This document shows, piece after piece, positions 24,041 to 34,378 of a DNA stretch of 39,321 nucleotides. Source of the stretch: Desulfomonile tiedjei (GTDB lineage: Bacteria > Desulfobacterota > Desulfomonilia > Desulfomonilales > Desulfomonilaceae); assembly GCA_020722215.1 (NCBI GenBank), contig DYLG01000006.1, positions 1 to 39,321 on the forward strand, in the 5' to 3' direction. A program made the position numbers and the translations under genes. The notes below the pieces were generated by a model. It did not search any database, was not told where the DNA came from, and was given only the letters and a program-made list of their open reading frames with translations. The stretch's first letter is position 1. Every line of letters starts with the position of its first letter.

Positions 24041-26635
24041 CTAGAGCTGGCTGGCGCGTTTCCTGAAGTGCATGCGCACAATTTCTGCCACAGTATTGAT
24101 GACAAAGGTCATGGCAAAGAGAACCAAACCCGTCATGAACAGCAGGCGGTAGAGCGTGTCGCCCTTGGGGGCCTCGGGGAGTTCCACCGCGATATTTGCG
24201 GACAAGGCTCGCAGACCGTCGAATATACTCATGTCTATGAGGGGCGTATTGCCGGTAGCCATCACCACTATCATTGTCTCGCCCACGGCACGGCCCATGC
24301 CGATCATCACCGCAGAAAAAACTCCGCTGATTGCAGTGGGCAAGATGATCCAGATGGCGGTTTGCCAGGGAGTGGCCCCACATCCAAGACTTGCCGCGCG
24401 CAGGTGTTCGGGGACGGCGTTCAGTGCGTCCTCTGCCAGCGTGTATATGATCGGAATCACGGCAAAGCCCATGGCAAAGCCCACAACCATGGTATTGCGT
24501 TGCATGTAGTCGCCGATTACCGAACCGCGAGCGTCAAGGCCGAGTTTCTGCAAGATCAGGGCGCCGGCGTACGATAAGCCTACGGTGAGCAGTGCAATTG
24601 CAGACCATCGGCCCAGGTCGAGAGCCGCGGCCCAAAAAGGATGGAAGCCAATCAAGTGTCTCTTAATTCTGCTGCCGATGAGCCTCTCCGACAGAATCGA
24701 GACCCCCAGCGCAGACAGGGGCGTTAAAAGCAGAAACAGAAAAGGAGTGGCTTCTCCATGTCTGCCGTTTAGCCAGCCCTTGAAGTCGCCTCCGAATGCC
24801 CAGGACTCCACTATCGGGGCAAGTAGATATGCACTGTACAGGCCCAGGCCAACCACAACAAACATCACGATGAACTTGGGCGTCCCGTCGAACCGAACTG
24901 CCATTCGAGGAGGAAGCATTTGCCAAAGGTAAGCGGCAAGCATCAGCGTAGTGGGCAGCACCCCGAAGGCCAGAATTACCGCCACGATCCACGTCTCGAC
25001 AAAAGGAGCGAGAACAAGGGCTGCTATGAACCCCAACACAACGGAAGGTACGGAAGCCATTACTTCTATAACGGGCTTGAGCTTCCCTCTCATGTTGGGA
25101 CTCAGGAACTCGGAGGTGTAAATCGCAGCCAGAATGGCAATAGGAATCGAAAACAACAGGGAGTAAAAAGTTGCCTTGAGAGTCCCGAATATGAGCGGAA
25201 TCAGTGAAAGTTTCGGCTCAAAAGCTTCTGTAGCTCCAGAGGACTGCCAGGTGTACGATGGTGCGCCATAGCCTTCGTACCAGACCTTGCCGAAAAGCGT
25301 TCCGAGCGAGATTTCAGGATAATGCAGCTCCAAATTCCAGAAATCGGTCATTCCGCCCTTTCGTGCCGCCAGCAGGGCGTCGTCGCGCGGGGCCATGGTC
25401 ATACGCGTGTCTTGATTGTCGGCACGAGGTTCCTTCAGCTTGAGCAAGGTCCTGCACGTGGTTCCCTGCCTCACCCAGACCTCACCCTGCGCATCAGCCG
25501 TAGCGAACACCTTTCCTCTCCGGCTGGGAGCAAACGCAACGATTGCCGAGCGTTGAGGCTCGAAACTCCTCGTATGGACCAAGGCGTATCCGTCGGAACT
25601 GTCTGCTTCATTTCGTCTGAGCACGAAATATATGTTCACTGAACCGTCCGAGCCACCGACCACAATCGAGGCCTCGCCCAGCAGGTAGGCCAGGATGTTC
25701 AACTGAACTCCATCCGTTAGTACTTGGGCGGTCTCAGCAAGGTGAGGGCTTGAAGGATCCCTTATGTTGAAGCGATAGACTCGTCCATTCTTGTCCCCGA
25801 ATAATACGTCGGTGGCCAGTTCGTTGATCAGGGCGTGACTTATGGCAGCGTCCCTCTTGAGAGGCGGCAAGACTATCTTTTCGGTCGAAAGGGTCATCTT
25901 CCGAGTGAGGCGGTTCAATTTCGATTCAGCAAAAACAAGAGTTCCGACGCGCGCTTGGTCCATGACAGCCAGAGTTTGCTTCGGCGTGCCGCCAAAACGG
26001 GTGAAGCGGTAGTCCATGGCCATGATAGGGCTGCCGGTTTCGGATACTTTGATTTCCGGGTCCAGCGCGAGCTTCATCGTGCACTTGCGCGTCTGGTCGC
26101 CCGGAATCCTGCTGTAAACCGCAGACCCGTCGGTGGAATCCCTTTCATCCAGCACCTTCAACGCGTCGGGCAACTCAGCCGGGCCGAAGATCTCCGTCTC
26201 GAAGATCAACCGCCCCAGGCGTACAGTCCCGTCGGAAAATCCGAAGGCCACGTTGGAAGGATTGATTCCCTGCGAAAAGGCTGTGACCTGCTTTCCCTCC
26301 AAGTCGAAAGACTCGGTTTTCAGCGGAGTGCCCGTGGCGGGGTGCCAGACAACGACCTTACCGTCGGGACCAATCTTGGCGGCAATGGCCTTGAACTCGT
26401 CCACTGCCAGGCCCAGAACGGGTTGATCCGGTTCAGGGGCCAAGAAGGCATTGTGGGACTGGGCTTTTCCGCCTTTGAAGAGCGGAAGCACTACAGCCAC
26501 GAGAAATATCATGATGCCGAAAACCGCACCGATTACCGCTATGCCGCCGATCGAGATCACCCGATCCGCGACCTTATCAGCGATCAATACCCAGCGACGC
26601 GCTTTTCTGGTCCCAGTACCATCCGAATTGGTCAT
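24041..26635 (-). CDS. pstC: Phosphate ABC transporter permease PstC, extended form
   Basis: 864 residues, nearly three times the usual PstC. First membrane span about 28-55. Then a periplasmic region of about 420 residues built of short beta repeats (KIGPDGKVVVWHPATG, FGFSDGTVRLGRLIFE, VLFGDKNGRVYRFNI, VVGGSDGSVNIYFVL, KVFATADAQGEVWVRQG), which look like WD40/beta-propeller blades. The permease core begins near 485, with EAA-loop EDALNAVPEHLRAASLGCGATPW. The fusion matches the COG4590-type permeases (from memory). Role: with PstA forms the phosphate channel. What the propeller binds is unknown. Start ATG 26635 has a weak ribosome site. Located between pstS (133 bases upstream, with terminator) and pstA. 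Confidence 0.93.
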   Translation of the reverse strand: MTNSDGTGTRKARRWVLIADKVADRVISIGGIAVIGAVFGIMIFLVAVVLPLFKGGKAQSHNAFLAPEPDQPVLGLAVDEFKAIAAKIGPDGKVVVWHPATGTPLKTESFDLEGKQVTAFSQGINPSNVAFGFSDGTVRLGRLIFETEIFGPAELPDALKVLDERDSTDGSAVYSRIPGDQTRKCTMKLALDPEIKVSETGSPIMAMDYRFTRFGGTPKQTLAVMDQARVGTLVFAESKLNRLTRKMTLSTEKIVLPPLKRDAAISHALINELATDVLFGDKNGRVYRFNIRDPSSPHLAETAQVLTDGVQLNILAYLLGEASIVVGGSDGSVNIYFVLRRNEADSSDGYALVHTRSFEPQRSAIVAFAPSRRGKVFATADAQGEVWVRQGTTCRTLLKLKEPRADNQDTRMTMAPRDDALLAARKGGMTDFWNLELHYPEISLGTLFGKVWYEGYGAPSYTWQSSGATEAFEPKLSLIPLIFGTLKATFYSLLFSIPIAILAAIYTSEFLSPNMRGKLKPVIEVMASVPSVVLGFIAALVLAPFVETWIVAVILAFGVLPTTLMLAAYLWQMLPPRMAVRFDGTPKFIVMFVVVGLGLYSAYLLAPIVESWAFGGDFKGWLNGRHGEATPFLFLLLTPLSALGVSILSERLIGSRIKRHLIGFHPFWAAALDLGRWSAIALLTVGLSYAGALILQKLGLDARGSVIGDYMQRNTMVVGFAMGFAVIPIIYTLAEDALNAVPEHLRAASLGCGATPWQTAIWIILPTAISGVFSAVMIGMGRAVGETMIVVMATGNTPLIDMSIFDGLRALSANIAVELPEAPKGDTLYRLLFMTGLVLFAMTFVINTVAEIVRMHFRKRASQL

Positions 26636-27958: not shown

Positions 27959-28753
27959 TCATAACATGCCGGATAACCTGGCGAAAAACTCGATTATGAC
28001 CGGCCCGGCCATTACGTACGTTACTGCTCCCACCGCGATGAACGGTCCATAAGGTATCGGCGTTGTTGAATCCACGCCGCGCAGAACCATGCCGGATATG
28101 CCGATCGCTGCACCGGTCACGGATGAAAAGAACAACACGAACACGACGCCGACCGGTCCCGTGAACGTCCCGATCATTGCAAGCAGTTTCACATCGCCGC
28201 CGCCAAGCCCTTCCGTCCCGCGAATCATTTCGTAGAGCACCGCAGGCACATAGAGCACCGCTCCCCCCAGCACCATGCCGATCAGCGAGGACTTCCAATC
28301 CATTCCCGGAATCAGGCCCAGAATCGAAGCTCCCAACCCGATGGGCAAGCCGTTGAGGGATATCTCGTCCGGGATGATCATGTGATCCAGGTCTATCCAG
28401 AAGACCACAACCATGGCGGCGCAAAACACGGAAAACACAAGAAGGGCGGGCGAGTATCCAATCCGGACATAGAGCCCGCAAAACAAAGCCCCTGTGACGA
28501 GTTCCACCAGCAGATATCGGGGAGAAATCCGCGTTGCGCAGTCTCTGCATCGGCCCCTGAGAGCGAGGTAACTCACTATGGGAATGTTGTCGTAAAAGCG
28601 GATGGGGCTGCCGCATTGCGGGCACCTTGAAGGAGGCGAGACAATGGATTGCTCCATGGGAAGCCTCAGAATGACGACGTTCAGAAAACTTCCTATTGCA
28701 GCGCCGTATACGAACGAGACTAGCATCCAGTAAAGACTTTGATCACCAGCCAT
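27959..28753 (-). CDS. Prepilin peptidase / N-methyltransferase (A24 family)
   Basis: 264 residues, polytopic membrane protein. Cleaves the leader of type IV pilin-like proteins and methylates the new N-terminus. The N-terminal domain has the signature GSFLNVVILRLP and the zinc-binding pairs C44-C47 and C69-C72 of the methyltransferase part. Catalytic aspartates are in the WIDLDHMIIPD (D121/D123) and GGGDVKL (D187) motifs. Start moved to ATG 28753, which has AGGAG 6 bases upstream and begins right before the first membrane helix; a longer frame to 28903 adds an atypical Cys/Arg-rich tail. It is the PilD/GspO type. It links to the motility genes nearby but no pilin gene is in the window. Confidence 0.92.
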   Translation of the reverse strand: MAGDQSLYWMLVSFVYGAAIGSFLNVVILRLPMEQSIVSPPSRCPQCGSPIRFYDNIPIVSYLALRGRCRDCATRISPRYLLVELVTGALFCGLYVRIGYSPALLVFSVFCAAMVVVFWIDLDHMIIPDEISLNGLPIGLGASILGLIPGMDWKSSLIGMVLGGAVLYVPAVLYEMIRGTEGLGGGDVKLLAMIGTFTGPVGVVFVLFFSSVTGAAIGISGMVLRGVDSTTPIPYGPFIAVGAVTYVMAGPVIIEFFARLSGML

Positions 28754-28826: not shown

Positions 28827-30506
28827 TTATGACAGGGGGGAGCCATGGCTGTTTGCCGGGCTTCGGGTCCGCATGGTTTCCGTTCCTGCCAAGGTGACCT
28901 CATAGGGGTATTCGCGCCGGATTAGCCAGGCCTGTTCGAGAGTGGCCACAATGACCGTCACGCAATCCAAGGGAACGCTTTCCAGGGCCAGGTCTTTGGG
29001 CAGCCTCCATTCACGTTCCACCGACCAGTCCGGTCCGGAATCTTTCAGGATTTGAAACAAGTACCTCTTATCCTTGGGCAGCGTGCGGAAAAGCTGCTCG
29101 CCCCCATAAATTACCGCTTCGGCGCCGAGCTTGATCAAGGTCGCCTTGTCGATTGCGATGCCGTAAGGCTCGAAGCTCCACCGGATGAGCCCGCTGCGCC
29201 ACTTGACAAGCTGCTCGAGTTCGCCGGGAAGGCACTCGGTGAAGGAAACCACAGGGACGTTGCCCCTGATCAGCCTGGCCGAACCGCGAATCAGGCCTTC
29301 GTCAAGAATACGCGTCAGGGTGTCGAATCCGGTGTGCCCACAAGTCGCGTGTCCGTCTATGAGACATTGGCAGTACTGTCCCAAGGTCTGACCAGGCCAC
29401 GGACCGCTGAGGGATCTCGTGTAATGAACAAGCCACAGGCCGCTTCCGGGCCAGTTCCGCAGCTTGAGAACTCGCCTTGGCACACGACCTTTTTCAACAG
29501 GGTTAGCGATTTCCCTCGGAGGTGATGCCGATTCGTCAGGCAACCAGATCGGCTCGATATTCCGGCCGGCATTGCTGCCCAGGATGTTGAGATTCCCGGC
29601 GGTCATGCTGTCGGCCTTGCCCGGAACGAATACCCTGATTCTCGTGCCTGTGCGGGACGCCTGTATGACGAGGGCTTCCATGTTCCCTCCCCCCCTCACC
29701 GCGGCCACGTAAACCGTCAGAGACAAGGCGATCACCAGCTTGTCCCGTTCACGATTCCTGGCCGCGGATGACGGCATTCCGCCAGGAGGAAACGGAGAAA
29801 CGACGAGGGTTGTGCGAGGATGAAAAAGATCATGGTGTCGATCGACAAACGCTTGCATCCGTTCACCGGACTGCATGAAAGGCAAAGCCTCGTCGCATAC
29901 CATGATGAGAGGGACCGAGCTGACTCGTGCGAGACGGCTGACTACAGCATAGGCCACAGTTCCGTAGCTTGAAACAACGGCGCAATGGTCCCTGCAAGCC
30001 TCGTGGAAAAGGATCCGCGTCACTCTGACCCAGGGTTCATCAGGAGCGATACGCCTTGGCTTGCGCGAATTCAGAACCGCAGCAGCCTTGAGGCCCGTCA
30101 CATCCGCGCTGCCCCATGCAAAGAGCATTGGAGGCAGATCGGGCAGGCTCTCGCCAGGAAGCCCCTGGGTGTGCCGTCTTAGCACTCTAAGGCCGCGGGC
30201 CAGCCATTGATCCACTCTCCTCATCGCGTGTTCCACCCGGGACGAATTGGGTCTTGCTTCCGCTCCTAACTCAACGCCGAGCCTGTAGCAGGCGTCGGCC
30301 AATGCCGCGACTATACTTCCTGACGATGAAACACCGATGCGAGCCATCTCCAAGGCGACACGAATCCGTTGCAGACAACCGAGCGAAGAGCGCGATTCAA
30401 GGAGGGCGCAAGCAAGAAGGGCTGGGGCGACTTCCTCCCGACTCATCGTACGCCAAGGAGCATCTTCGGCAACCGTATCCTGGTTCATCGATGAAATTGA
30501 CACCAC
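28827..30506 (-). CDS. DprA/SLOG-like domain fused to an ART-like C-terminal domain; function unknown
   Basis: 559 residues, no signal peptide or membrane span. Residues 1-120 are helical and unrecognised. Residues about 125-325 follow the DprA (DNA-processing A) Rossmann pattern: PMLFAWG, AAVLNSRKP (for VAIVGSR), VVSSYGTVAYA, VSPFPPGG, RNRERDKLVIALS (for RNRIIAGLS), then FVPG and GNLNILGSNAG. Residues about 357-535 form a second domain with HYTRSLSGPWPGQ (H361), VVSFTE (422-424), PYGIAI, AEAVIYG and DWSVEREWR (E497/E499). That pattern recalls DUF2971/AbiGi/DarT-like families; ADP-ribosyltransferase activity is inference only. Start GTG 30506 has GAAGG at good spacing; ATG 30491 is the alternative. 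It lies 73 bases upstream of the prepilin peptidase gene. Confidence 0.65.
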   Translation of the reverse strand: MVSISSMNQDTVAEDAPWRTMSREEVAPALLACALLESRSSLGCLQRIRVALEMARIGVSSSGSIVAALADACYRLGVELGAEARPNSSRVEHAMRRVDQWLARGLRVLRRHTQGLPGESLPDLPPMLFAWGSADVTGLKAAAVLNSRKPRRIAPDEPWVRVTRILFHEACRDHCAVVSSYGTVAYAVVSRLARVSSVPLIMVCDEALPFMQSGERMQAFVDRHHDLFHPRTTLVVSPFPPGGMPSSAARNRERDKLVIALSLTVYVAAVRGGGNMEALVIQASRTGTRIRVFVPGKADSMTAGNLNILGSNAGRNIEPIWLPDESASPPREIANPVEKGRVPRRVLKLRNWPGSGLWLVHYTRSLSGPWPGQTLGQYCQCLIDGHATCGHTGFDTLTRILDEGLIRGSARLIRGNVPVVSFTECLPGELEQLVKWRSGLIRWSFEPYGIAIDKATLIKLGAEAVIYGGEQLFRTLPKDKRYLFQILKDSGPDWSVEREWRLPKDLALESVPLDCVTVIVATLEQAWLIRREYPYEVTLAGTETMRTRSPANSHGSPLS

Positions 30507-30681: not shown

Positions 30682-32433
30682 TCATGGCAGTGAGCTTGGG
30701 CTTTCCTCTCCGGTGAGGACTGCCAGGATGTTTTTCAGCCTTTCAAGGTCCTTGACCGTAACCCGGTTTCTGTTGACTTTCACGATGTCCAGAGATTCCA
30801 GCTTGCCGAGGTATTTCTTGACTTGAAGGGAGTCGTCAAGCCTGAACATGTCCCTCAATTCCTTAACGTCCACGGATGTATCTTTTCTGACCGAGTTCCT
30901 GATATGCAGATATGCCAGGCCGGATAAGAGGCGACTGAGATCGTCTTTGTGGAGAAGACCCGCCAGGAGGGCCTCGGAATCTCTGAGTTTTTCCACCAGG
31001 CCGATAATGATTCCGCGGGAGAAGTCCTGGGGAATGAGCTTGAAGAAGGCATCCTTCTCTATCTTGACAAGAGTGCAGTCTTGGAGGGCCCTGGTATAGC
31101 CGCACCGATAGCCGTTGTCCAGCAATCCGGTCTCTCCGAAGAAGTCCCCTTCCTCCAGGACGGCAATGGTTTGCTTGATCTGTCCGGCCTGGAAGAAGTG
31201 TCCAACTTTTCCGGATTTGATGAAATATACGCAACTTGCCGGATCGTCGTGATGGAAGACAAGCTTGCCTGAGCCGATGTTCTCCGTCTGCGTGAATGCC
31301 TTGGATATTTGACTGTCGGAAGGTTCTGTTGACTCCGCTGCCTCATCTGCTCTTAAGAAGTCTTTGCTCGGCCCGACCGGCATGTCCGTCTTTTCGAACG
31401 TCTCCAGGGACTCCATTCCCGTGGGTCCTTCATTGAAAAGCTTCTTCAGCCGCCGCTTGTCCATGGCGATTTCCCGGGGAAACAGCTCTCGCACATACTC
31501 GGAAAACACCCTTCTGTCCGTGACCAAGGAGCACTTAAGACTAACGGAGCGCAAATCGTCGATCATGTTCTCCATCCAGGGATAGCGGTCTTCAGGGTGT
31601 GCCGCCATGGCCTTTATCAGGACCGGCTTGATCTCGGGATGGATGCGGTCATCGCCCTCGACTCTGGCGCGGACGTCCATTTCGAGAATCAATTTGACAG
31701 TATCACCGGCGGTTTCTTGATGATCCACCAGACGTTCCCCGGTGAGAAGCTCGTAAAGGAACAGGCCTGCGCCGTAGATGTCCACCCGATGATCCGTAGG
31801 TTTGCCGCGAATCTGTTCCGGAGAAAAGTACAGGAGCTTGCCCGCCACCGGCAAGCCGTTGGAATTGGATTGATCAAGAAATATCCTGGCGATACCGAAG
31901 TCGATGATCTTTACGTCGCTCTCATAGGAAATCATTACATTGAACGAATTGAGGTCCTGATGGACCAGTTTCATGTTTTCATCATTCGGGTCCTTCTTCC
32001 TATGGGCATATGCCAGACCGGCGGCCACCTCCATCATGACATACACCGCGAAATCCAGCCTGGGGAGACGGCCCGCTTTCCTGGCCTTGGACAGCATATG
32101 GGCCACGTTTCGGCCTTCAATGTACTCAAGAGCGATGTAGTATTCCCCATTTAGCATTCCCGCATCAATTATCTGCACGATGTTGACATGATTGAGCTGA
32201 GCCAGGGTTTTGGCTTCGTTCATGAACCTCTGGACATAGCGCGGCATTGCCGCGTATTCCGGAAAAAGTTTCTTGATGATGAGCGGTTTCTGGAAGCCCC
32301 CTGGGCCGACCATCTTGCCAAGATAGATGTCGGACATCCCGCCCCGAGAAACCCTCTCAACAAGGTAATACCTGCCGAAAAGGGAAGGCTTGAAGATGAC
32401 GGGCCGGCCTTTGTCCTTTGAATGAGTCACCAT
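30682..32433 (-). CDS. Serine/threonine protein kinase fused to cNMP-binding domain and winged helix
   Basis: 583 residues. Kinase domain about 18-300: Gly-rich loop SRGGMSDIYLG, ATP-binding K54/K55 (PLIIKKL), catalytic loop VHQDLNSFN (D160, N165), DFG 178-180, APE-like SPEQ. The usual HRDLKxxN is changed at R (Q159) and K (N162), though D and N remain. A linker of about 85 residues precedes a cyclic-nucleotide-binding fold (about 385-475: IKSGKVGHFFQ, VLEEGDFFGETGLLDNGYR) and a CRP-like C-terminal winged helix (about 500-575). This suggests nucleotide-gated phosphorylation or DNA binding, not shown. It starts 23 bases after the CheW-like gene and ends the Mgl operon. ATG 32433 has a weak ribosome site. 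Confidence 0.85.
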   Translation of the reverse strand: MVTHSKDKGRPVIFKPSLFGRYYLVERVSRGGMSDIYLGKMVGPGGFQKPLIIKKLFPEYAAMPRYVQRFMNEAKTLAQLNHVNIVQIIDAGMLNGEYYIALEYIEGRNVAHMLSKARKAGRLPRLDFAVYVMMEVAAGLAYAHRKKDPNDENMKLVHQDLNSFNVMISYESDVKIIDFGIARIFLDQSNSNGLPVAGKLLYFSPEQIRGKPTDHRVDIYGAGLFLYELLTGERLVDHQETAGDTVKLILEMDVRARVEGDDRIHPEIKPVLIKAMAAHPEDRYPWMENMIDDLRSVSLKCSLVTDRRVFSEYVRELFPREIAMDKRRLKKLFNEGPTGMESLETFEKTDMPVGPSKDFLRADEAAESTEPSDSQISKAFTQTENIGSGKLVFHHDDPASCVYFIKSGKVGHFFQAGQIKQTIAVLEEGDFFGETGLLDNGYRCGYTRALQDCTLVKIEKDAFFKLIPQDFSRGIIIGLVEKLRDSEALLAGLLHKDDLSRLLSGLAYLHIRNSVRKDTSVDVKELRDMFRLDDSLQVKKYLGKLESLDIVKVNRNRVTVKDLERLKNILAVLTGEESPSSLP

Positions 32434-32456: not shown

Positions 32457-33746
32457 CTAGTGGAAGGCCGCTTCGTTCAAGATGGTATACGCGACGTTCC
32501 CTATCTTGATTTTGTGCTCTTTGGACAGATTCACTCCTTTGGGCGATCGTCGATAGCCCAAGGTCCTTTCAGCCAGAACAAAGAACTCCTTGCCCCCGAT
32601 GAGCACGTGGATCAACCAACCGGGCAGGGCCTTGGCCTGGGATTCGGCAACCTCGGGTAGCTTGAGGGGCAGTTTGGGGACCGGTTTGTTTGCAAGCACC
32701 AGGGTAGCCTTGTCGACGAATTGCTCCGCCTGGGACTTGCCCAGGGGGTAGAGCGCCGAGACCGCAACGGAAGGGATGGCCAAAGCCACTCCGCTCAACT
32801 GAACCATAAGCAGTCCGTCCGGGCCGGACTTCCCGTCCTCCGTCGGGCCGCGGCCGATGGGTTGGGCATCGTGTTCCGGCGACAGGCGAGAAAGTTCCCT
32901 GTGAAGAGCGGAGAGCTTGCCAACCCGATCAGCCAAATGACTTTCGAGGCTCCCGAGTCTCCGGGCGATTTCTCCTTCGGGCATGTCTCCTCCCTTTCGG
33001 AGGACGGCCAGCAGCCTGGCCAGTCGCTGACTGATGTCCTCGAGCGACTGGACGGCGCCCCCCAGACTCCCCATCACAGACCCGAAATCGGTTGCAGCCG
33101 GGGTCTCATGAGGCTGAGGCCGGGCCTGCTCCGTGGGAGGCAGTATTTGATGATAGTTGGATACTATGGTTGCCAGCAAGGCTTTTTCCGGAGGTTTCCT
33201 GCCCTTGGAAGCGTGAATCTGCCTTATTGCCGACACACTGTCCTTCAGCAACTGCACCATCAACGGGTGCGGGGCGACTCCGGGTGTGCTGCAGCGCTGC
33301 AACACGCGAAGATTCATGTTGACGATGGTTCTTGGATGACCCTCCTTGGGCAGAAAACGAACCATGTCCTTGAAGTTCTCGGACAAACGATGTATCGTTT
33401 GGATTTCGGCTTCCCATTCAACGTCCAGAATCAAAGCATCGATCCTGTCCAGCAATTCCTCCAGGCCTCCGGCTCTTTTCTGTGGCACTGCCGGAGCCTG
33501 TGGCGGAGACTGGCGCGCAGCGGGCCGGGCAGGCTCGGTCCTTGGCGCAGCGGGCCGTTGCGGGGCCGCTGGGGAGCGGGCAGGCTTGGGCTCAGCGGGT
33601 TGAGTTTGCTGAGGGGCAGGTTGCTCGTCGAACAATCCGCCGAACAGCTCCTCAATCTTCTGTCCCACGGCCATTCCAAGTTCTTCCGGGCTTTTGTATT
33701 CCTTGTTGTCCGCCACAGGCCTTCTCCGGACCACGGATGAGTTCAT
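32457..33746 (-). CDS. Probable CheW-like scaffold protein with Pro-rich N-terminus
   Basis: 429 residues. Residues 40-95 are a low-complexity Pro/Ala/Gln/Arg segment. The middle is helical, with possible four-helix or coiled regions (LEELLDRIDALILDVEWEAEIQTIHRLSENF; LEDISQRLARLLAVL; ADRVGKLSALHRELSRL). The last 115 residues (GLLMVQLSGVALAIPSVAVSALYPL ... WLIHVLIGGKEFFVLAERTLGYRR) have the strand spacing of a divergent CheW/SH3-like domain. I read it as a scaffold linking MglA to the kinase, but this is tentative; it could be an unrelated Mgl effector. Its ATG 33746 overlaps the mglA stop (ATGA), so the two are translationally coupled. Confidence 0.5.
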   Translation of the reverse strand: MNSSVVRRRPVADNKEYKSPEELGMAVGQKIEELFGGLFDEQPAPQQTQPAEPKPARSPAAPQRPAAPRTEPARPAARQSPPQAPAVPQKRAGGLEELLDRIDALILDVEWEAEIQTIHRLSENFKDMVRFLPKEGHPRTIVNMNLRVLQRCSTPGVAPHPLMVQLLKDSVSAIRQIHASKGRKPPEKALLATIVSNYHQILPPTEQARPQPHETPAATDFGSVMGSLGGAVQSLEDISQRLARLLAVLRKGGDMPEGEIARRLGSLESHLADRVGKLSALHRELSRLSPEHDAQPIGRGPTEDGKSGPDGLLMVQLSGVALAIPSVAVSALYPLGKSQAEQFVDKATLVLANKPVPKLPLKLPEVAESQAKALPGWLIHVLIGGKEFFVLAERTLGYRRSPKGVNLSKEHKIKIGNVAYTILNEAAFH

Positions 33747-34378
33747 TTGCCGGTCAGACTTATCCCCTTCTCTTTCAAGAGACGGGCGCTGACATCCACG
33801 ACCGTCATCATGCAGATTTTCTTGAACGTTTCCCTCACTCCGTCCCCCTTGAGGGCGCTTCCCGGAAAGGATGGATGACGGCCTTGGGTGTTGAGGGTTC
33901 GTTCCATCTCTTCAATGGGCATTATGGCAACCTTACTACCGTCCAGGTCCCGCTTGTTGTATTGGAATACAAGCGGGACCGAATTGAGCCCCTTTCCTTG
34001 CTCAGTCAAGTTGTCGTTGAGGTTCTGCAAGCTCTCGATATTGTTGTTCCTTCTGGCCTCCAGGGAATCGGCCACAAACACTATCCCGTCCACTCCCTTG
34101 AGAACCAGTTTCCGCGTGTCGTTGTATCGGACCTGTCCAGGGACCGTGTACAGGGATATCTTGATCTTGAATTTCCCAATGGATCCAAGGTCCATGGGCA
34201 GGAAGTCGAAGAACAGCGTTCGGTCTCCCGCGGTATCTATGGAGAGCAGTTCGCCGCGGGCTTGATGCCCCAAAGCCTTATGGATAGATATCAGGTTCGT
34301 GGTCTTGCCACCCCTTCCAGGACCGTAATAAACGATCTTACAGTGAATCTCATCAGATCGAAAGCTGATTATTGCCAT
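33743..34378 (-). CDS. mglA: MglA-family Ras-like GTPase
   Basis: 211 residues. Small GTPase of the MglA/Rup family that sets cell polarity for gliding or type IV pilus motility. G1 GPGRGGKT at 19-26, R53 in TAGDRT, Q82 in TVPGQ, G4 NKRD at 141-144 and G5-like GSALKGDGV. R53 and Q82 match the catalytic residues known in Myxococcus/Thermus MglA. The N-terminal MAIISFRSDEIHCKIVYYGPG matches the family start. AGGAT precedes ATG 34378. Coupled by ATGA to the CheW-like gene and downstream of mglB by 230 bases, the usual order MglB then MglA. Confidence 0.94.
   Translation of the reverse strand: MAIISFRSDEIHCKIVYYGPGRGGKTTNLISIHKALGHQARGELLSIDTAGDRTLFFDFLPMDLGSIGKFKIKISLYTVPGQVRYNDTRKLVLKGVDGIVFVADSLEARRNNNIESLQNLNDNLTEQGKGLNSVPLVFQYNKRDLDGSKVAIMPIEEMERTLNTQGRHPSFPGSALKGDGVRETFKKICMMTVVDVSARLLKEKGISLTGK

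What the first reader, a model, noticed from the sequence alone, without database searches (positions are those of the whole stretch)
28827..30506. DprA/SLOG-like domain fused to ART-like domain: candidate undescribed effector
Seen: one 559-residue protein has a complete DprA-style motif series and a separate C-terminal domain with HYT (361), FTE (422-424), PYGIAI, VIYG and EREWR. DprA/SLOG domains are proposed sensors of nucleotide-derived ligands in conflict systems (established), and H-x-T with a late Glu recalls DarT, DUF2971 and AbiGi-type proteins. Inference: a sensor-effector, possibly in phage defence. Unlike classical DprA it is not in a competence context and lies beside a prepilin peptidase.
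Basis: partly seen in the sequence, partly recalled or inferred. Interest (0 to 1): 0.75.

Follow-up and report, generated by a model that had tools for sequence, protein, structure and literature searches.

The report
DprA-like domain fused to ADP-ribosyltransferase-like domain
One bacterial protein joins a DNA-uptake-type (DprA-like) domain to a domain shaped like enzymes that attach ADP-ribose, and in most close relatives its gene sits beside DNA-uptake genes; it is inherited as an ordinary core gene rather than as a mobile defence gene, so it may be an ADP-ribosylating enzyme linked to single-stranded DNA.

Summary
Window 28827-30506 (-) encodes one 559-aa protein. Residues ~15-325 form a DprA/ShosA-like unit and residues ~356-541 an ADP-ribosyltransferase (ART)-like domain. 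All 14 significant PDB fold matches of the full-length model are DprA or the antitoxin ShosA. The six best fold matches of the C-domain model are all ART-superfamily (DarT first), though none is individually significant. By profile the C-domain relates to DUF2971. H-x-T and E-x-E-W-R are unchanged in 42/42 homologues. R148, aligned with the ssDNA-binding Arg of DprA (R115/R52), is unchanged in 30/30 fused homologues. The gene is near-universal in its Desulfobacterota family (Desulfomonilaceae), tracks ComEC and PilD phylogeny, and has no recurrent defence neighbours. Contrary to the finding, competence genes do accompany it: comEC-rodZ-113aa lie upstream in 14/16 assessable genomes (not in the window's own) and the prepilin peptidase downstream in 15/16. 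Canonical DprA is encoded separately. Best reading: a vertically inherited DprA-like protein whose winged helix is replaced by a DarT/DUF2971-type ART, probably acting at ssDNA during DNA uptake or repair; abortive-type defence remains possible. Activity and target are untested.

The parts
28827..30506 (-). SLOG/DprA-ART fusion protein, 559 aa
30162..30464 (-). N-terminal helical region, residues 15-115 (four helices, in the place of DprA's N-terminal SAM-like domain)
   Evidence: model; the alignments to DprA 3maj and ShosA 8zva span about 320 columns
29532..30149 (-). DprA/SLOG Rossmann domain, residues 120-325
   Evidence: PADLOC PsyrA E 3.4e-4 over residues 97-325
30051..30071 (-). N146-S-R148-K-P-R-R152, equivalent of the DprA G(S/T)R ssDNA-binding motif
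   Evidence: R148 aligns with SpDprA R115 and the canonical GTR; R115/R52 role in PMC4066776
29739..29747 (-). R254-D255-K256, RNR of DprA changed to RD(K/R); D255 invariant
29442..29531 (-). low-confidence linker, residues 326-355
   Evidence: pLDDT about 41 at residues 331-350
28884..29441 (-). ART-like (DarT/DUF2971/AbiGi-type) domain, residues 356-541
29418..29426 (-). H361-Y-T363, H-x-T on strand beta1 (DarT H13-I14-T15 contacts the adenine ribose of NAD+)
   Evidence: 42/42 conserved; DarT residues from PMC9967889
29265..29267 (-). R414, Arg in the loop before strand beta2 (33/42 R, 3 K; invariant in fused proteins)
29004..29018 (-). E497-R-E499-W-R501, candidate ART E-x-E motif
   Evidence: 42/42 for E497, E499, W500, R501
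27959..28753 (-). prepilin peptidase (PilD), conserved downstream neighbour; likely ATG at 28753 with AGGAG, 73 nt after the fusion gene's stop
   Evidence: PF06750/PF01478; sequence; adjacency in 15 of 16 genomes

Best explanation
A single-chain, vertically inherited protein of Desulfobacterota in which a DprA-type unit (helical N-domain plus Rossmann/SLOG) has its C-terminal winged helix replaced by a DarT/DUF2971-type ADP-ribosyltransferase. The most likely mechanism: the DprA part binds ssDNA (incoming during uptake, or exposed during repair or replication) through R148 and its basic neighbours. This places or activates the ART domain, which binds NAD+ (H361/T363) and uses the E-x-E glutamates to ADP-ribosylate the bound DNA or a protein on it. 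Shown: the architecture, folds, conserved residues, vertical inheritance, and linkage to comEC and pilD in Desulfomonilaceae. Inferred: ssDNA binding, catalysis, target, and a role in DNA uptake or processing.
For: DprA homology by profile (prob 96%, E 4.7e-9; 30 control families at most 0.6%) and fold (14/14 top hits DprA or ShosA). R148 aligned with SpDprA R115 and invariant in 30/30. ART fold ranks 1-6, DUF2971 profile match (prob 94.9%, E 4.6e-8; unrelated controls at most 9.6%), H-x-T and E-x-E 42/42. Present in 16 of 17 family members searched besides the window's own genome. Synteny comEC-rodZ-113aa-fusion-pilD. Target tree shares 6/9 splits with ComEC (random mean 0.2, maximum 4 in 2000) and 8/12 with PilD. 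A separate canonical DprA is found in nearly all genomes examined, the window's included.
Against: No biochemical evidence. The ART fold hits are individually weak (E 0.026) and there is no profile match to a four-sequence DarT set. In the window's own genome and its nearest relative G010 the comEC side is replaced by a kinase-cNMP gene, and comEC lies on another contig. In the other families with the fusion the gene lies elsewhere, for example near ychF/obg or DUF374 genes. The canonical SGLARGID and RNR motifs of DprA are changed.
Confidence: 0.5

Rival explanations
1. Single-gene abortive-infection defence: the DprA/ShosA/PsyrA-like half senses phage DNA or restrains the toxic ART half in cis, and phage infection releases the ART to poison the cell.
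For: DprA-like proteins act as antitoxins or sensors in ShosTA, PsyrTA and RqlHI and in a DprA-PRTase defence system (PMC9122126; PMC4670107); PADLOC PsyrA is the best annotated N-domain match and ShosA is fold rank 2; DarT-type ARTs are antiphage toxins.
Against: Family-core distribution and tree congruence with ComEC and PilD; no recurrent defence neighbours; housekeeping context in every family examined.
Confidence: 0.22
2. NAD-signal sensor-effector: the SLOG half binds an ADP-ribose-type nucleotide, as ThsA SLOG binds cADPR isomers, and switches the ART-like domain as an NADase.
For: SLOG domains bind cADPR isomers in Thoeris (PMC9503650); ART-superfamily domains can act as NADases.
Against: The SLOG is of the DprA branch (only DprA/ShosA among significant folds), not the YpsA/ThsA branch; R148 fits ssDNA; no signal-producing TIR gene recurs among the annotated neighbours shown.
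Confidence: 0.12
3. Non-catalytic or unrelated regulator: an ART-like scaffold without transfer activity serving pilus or cell-envelope regulation next to pilD.
For: Neither the DarT nor the classical R-S-E triad is reproduced in full; the operon-like neighbour is the prepilin peptidase.
Against: Absolute conservation of the polar H, T, E, E, R residues over very divergent and stand-alone homologues is typical of an active site; pilD linkage is lost in the other families.
Confidence: 0.13

Closest known systems
DprA/Smf (PF02481, TIGR00732)
   Same: Helical N-domain plus Rossmann; collinear motif series; the ssDNA-binding Arg (R148 = SpDprA R115 / HpDprA R52).
   Different: SGLARGID is SSYGTVAY and RNR is RD(K/R); no winged-helix C-domain, replaced by an ART-like domain; a canonical DprA is encoded separately in the same genome; the window protein is below the family cut-offs (two relatives exceed that of PF02481).
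ShosA / PsyrA (RqlI), DprA-like antitoxins
   Same: The whole N-half folds like ShosA (8zva, TMt 0.67); PADLOC PsyrA profile E 1.6e-7 in the best relative.
   Different: Those pair with a separate PRTase toxin (RqlH a RecQ-PRTase); here no recurrent partner gene, and an ART-like domain in cis.
DarT (PF14487), DNA ADP-ribosyltransferase toxin
   Same: Best fold match of the C-domain (7omy); H-x-T on beta1, late Glu on a strand.
   Different: No significant profile match to four DarTs; E-x-E-W-R in place of (Q/C)-A-E; no adjacent DarG macrodomain.
DUF2971 (PF11185) and AbiGi (PF10899)
   Same: Profile match to 13 DUF2971 proteins (prob 94.9%, E 4.6e-8) through W-x-x-E-x-E-W-R; stand-alone relatives hit AbiGi weakly (E 0.004-0.03).
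   Different: Below the curated cut-offs; fused to a DprA domain; the DUF2971 alignment covers only 83 columns and misses the H-x-T region.

Membership tests
DprA/Smf | Rossmann/SLOG fold of the DprA type | tested here: met
DprA/Smf | Curated family cut-off (PF02481 29.6 bits; TIGR00732 191 bits) | tested here: not met
   Window protein: no PF02481 hit, TIGR00732 14.1 bits. Two relatives exceed PF02481 (50.7 and 30.9 bits).
DprA/Smf | ssDNA-binding Arg of the G(S/T)R motif | tested here: met
   R148, 30/30
DprA/Smf | SGxAxGID and RNR motifs | tested here: not met
   alignment: SSYGTVAY and RDK
DprA/Smf | RecA loading | not testable with these tools
   needs biochemistry
ART superfamily | ART fold | tested here: met
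   Ranks 1-6 of the PDB search are ART-superfamily, best prob 0.87; supported by rank enrichment, no single hit at E<=1e-3
ART superfamily | NAD+-binding His/Arg on beta1 and catalytic Glu on a later strand | tested here: met
   H361/T363 and E497/E499, 42/42; pocket geometry itself not measured
ART superfamily | NAD+-dependent activity | not testable with these tools
   needs an assay
DarTG | DarT sequence family | tested here: not met
   hhalign prob 0.2% against four DarTs; the window genome has no PF14487 hit
DarTG | Adjacent DarG macrodomain or NADAR antitoxin | tested here: not met
   Every one of 12 genomes has a macrodomain gene but none adjacent; no NADAR
DUF2971/AbiGi superfamily | Profile homology | tested here: met
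   prob 94.9%, unrelated controls at most 9.6%; below the Pfam cut-off
ShosTA / PsyrTA / RqlHI | PRTase partner gene | tested here: not met
   no recurrent partner or PRTase among the neighbours shown (only the 25 commonest Pfam families were listed)
Anti-phage defence system | Defence-island neighbourhood | tested here: not met
   86 neighbours of the gene across several families: each PADLOC family listed matched one protein only (the 25 shown are mostly kinase and sigma-54-activator models); 25 of 56 listed
Anti-phage defence system | Reduces phage infection | not testable with these tools
   needs an assay

The most novel reading that the evidence does not exclude
A competence-linked DNA ADP-ribosyltransferase: a second DprA that, on single-stranded DNA brought in through ComEC, reversibly ADP-ribosylates that DNA or the recombination machinery, marking or licensing incoming DNA as part of normal transformation rather than defence.
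Probability: 0.15. Interest if true: 0.88.

Novelty: new variant of a known kind. Interest (0 to 1): 0.6.

Why it matters
DprA-like domains and ARTs are each known in conflict systems, but a cis fusion of the two was not found in the family libraries or the open papers searched, and here it is a core gene of an environmental sulfate-reducer lineage, tied to comEC/pilD. If active, it would connect ADP-ribosylation with DNA uptake or ssDNA handling outside toxin-antitoxin biology, and give a fold-level lead that DUF2971/AbiGi-type proteins may be ARTs.

Tried and rejected
A1 had no stretch conserved enough for a genome-contig scan, so a closer set, A2, was used. A first DprA extraction picked wrong ORFs and gave a false negative profile result; corrected. 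No phage records match the C-domain by tblastn; plasmids give two weak Streptomyces hits. A search of solved structures by sequence for the C-domain found nothing relevant. Literature searches for DUF2971 together with ADP-ribosyltransferase found no paper. PADLOC kinase and sigma-54-activator hits among neighbours were rejected as generic domains. A sporadic 36% match on contig C201 was not pursued. dN/dS was not attempted because the nearest relatives are at about 42% identity.

Full report
Observation. The ORF at 28827-30506 (-) exists as described and encodes 559 aa with all quoted motifs at the quoted residues. It starts at GTG with a Shine-Dalgarno-like GAAGG. The window protein has no Pfam or NCBIfam family at cut-off; its best PADLOC profile match is PsyrA, residues 97-325, E 3.4e-4.

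Homologues. The genome is a MAG; named relatives are Desulfomonilaceae (Desulfomonile and unnamed Deltaproteobacteria). Besides its own genome, 16 of 17 members of the family have a match, against none in the 24 members of the other family of the class that were searched (list completed). A profile search of 395 genomes of the phylum finds the fusion again in three other families, f38, f71 (Desulfacinum/Desulfosoma) and f91. Named fused relatives also include Desulfoferrobacter, and short SLOG-ART versions occur in Candidatus Lindowbacteria and Hydrogenedentota. The C-domain alone occurs as 180-220 aa proteins in other Desulfobacterota, in IMG/VR viral contigs and on two Streptomyces plasmids.

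N-terminal half. AlphaFold2 of the full protein on 30 homologues gives pLDDT 85, pTM 0.84. All 14 PDB matches with E<=1e-3 are DprA (13) or ShosA, an antitoxin of the DprA type. The N-terminal profile matches canonical DprAs from the same genomes at prob 96%, E 4.7e-9; 30 unrelated cluster families score at most 0.6%. R148, invariant in 30/30, aligns with SpDprA R115, the totally conserved arginine whose mutation lowers ssDNA binding and whose HpDprA equivalent is R52 (PMC4066776). SGLARGID and RNR of DprA are replaced by SSYGTVAY and RDK. A canonical DprA of 402 aa is present in the same genome (contig C218), so this is a second DprA-type protein.

C-terminal half. The model of residues 351-545 on 42 homologues has pLDDT 88.5, pTM 0.85. 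PDB ranks 1-6 are DarT (E 0.026, prob 0.87), KptA (three chains), Arr and RES, and ParT, further Arr chains and AvrPphF follow among unrelated hits. No single hit is significant; the support is that every top hit belongs to one superfamily. The profile matches 13 DUF2971 proteins (prob 94.9%, E 4.6e-8; the unrelated controls reach at most 9.6%) but not four DarTs (prob 0.2%). H361, T363, E497, E499, W500 and R501 are 42/42. In DarT, H13 and T15 of an H-x-T contact the adenine ribose of NAD+ and E160 is required (PMC9967889); equivalence of H361/T363 and E499 is by motif and strand position, not by superposition, because no coordinates were available.

Context. In Desulfomonilaceae the order is comEC (divergent; PF03772) | rodZ-like gene, 113-aa gene, fusion gene, pilD, then usually the pst operon. 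The comEC-rodZ side is present in 14 of 16 assessable genomes, and pilD directly downstream in 15 of 16. The exceptions on the comEC side are the window's own genome and G010, where a kinase-cNMP gene lies upstream; comEC and rodZ of the window genome are together on contig C259. In the other families the gene lies elsewhere: in f71 near ychF and obg, in f38 beside DUF374 or BamA-like genes (the BamA label is a reading by eye). Within Desulfomonilaceae the fusion tree shares 6 of 9 splits with ComEC (random mean 0.2, maximum 4 of 2000 label shuffles) and 8 of 12 with PilD, so it is vertically inherited. Among 86 neighbour proteins, no listed PADLOC family recurs and the commonest Pfam families are housekeeping. 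Each of 12 genomes tested has a macrodomain gene, none adjacent to the fusion gene, and no NADAR.

Mechanism. DprA homologues act as antitoxins in ShosTA, PsyrTA and RqlHI, and a DprA-PRTase pair defends against phage (PMC9122126; PMC4670107). The present protein puts an ART-like domain in cis instead of a PRTase in trans. Given ssDNA-arginine retention, a likely NAD+ site, vertical inheritance and linkage to comEC/pilD, I favour an ssDNA-directed ADP-ribosyltransferase of DNA uptake or repair, confidence 0.5. Abortive defence (0.22), NAD-signal sensing (0.12) and a non-catalytic regulator (0.13) remain. Steps inferred and not shown: ssDNA binding, NAD+ use, the target, and any effect on transformation or phage.

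Limits. Most genomes are MAGs. PilD also serves type II secretion and type IV pili, so its linkage is not proof of competence. PADLOC and Pfam neighbour lists were truncated to 25 families. Absence from the literature was tested only in open-licence papers.

Noticed in passing
L089, L091, L092 (IMG/VR viral contigs): Stand-alone 207-229 aa versions of the ART-like domain lie a few genes upstream of the terminase large subunit in three phage contigs with two terminase types; a possible phage accessory effector.
   Followed up: partly
window 30682-32433 (-): Ser/Thr protein kinase fused to a cyclic-nucleotide-binding domain, next to a Ras/Arf-like GTPase (33743-34378), a Roadblock/LC7 protein, a DUF4388 protein and CheB: a possible GTPase-Roadblock signalling module.
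   Followed up: no
L037:2998-3339, L034:7834-8175 and equivalents: A conserved 113-aa protein without a Pfam family lies between rodZ and the fusion gene in most Desulfomonilaceae; a possible partner.
   Followed up: partly
window 24041-26635 (-): 864-aa protein conserved at 53-59% in the pst operon of relatives; apparently a Pst-type permease with a long N-terminal extension (reading by eye).
   Followed up: no
alignment A3 against DUF2971 set: The profile link to DUF2971 together with the ART fold suggests that DUF2971/AbiGi-type proteins, of unknown function, may be ADP-ribosyltransferases.
   Followed up: partly
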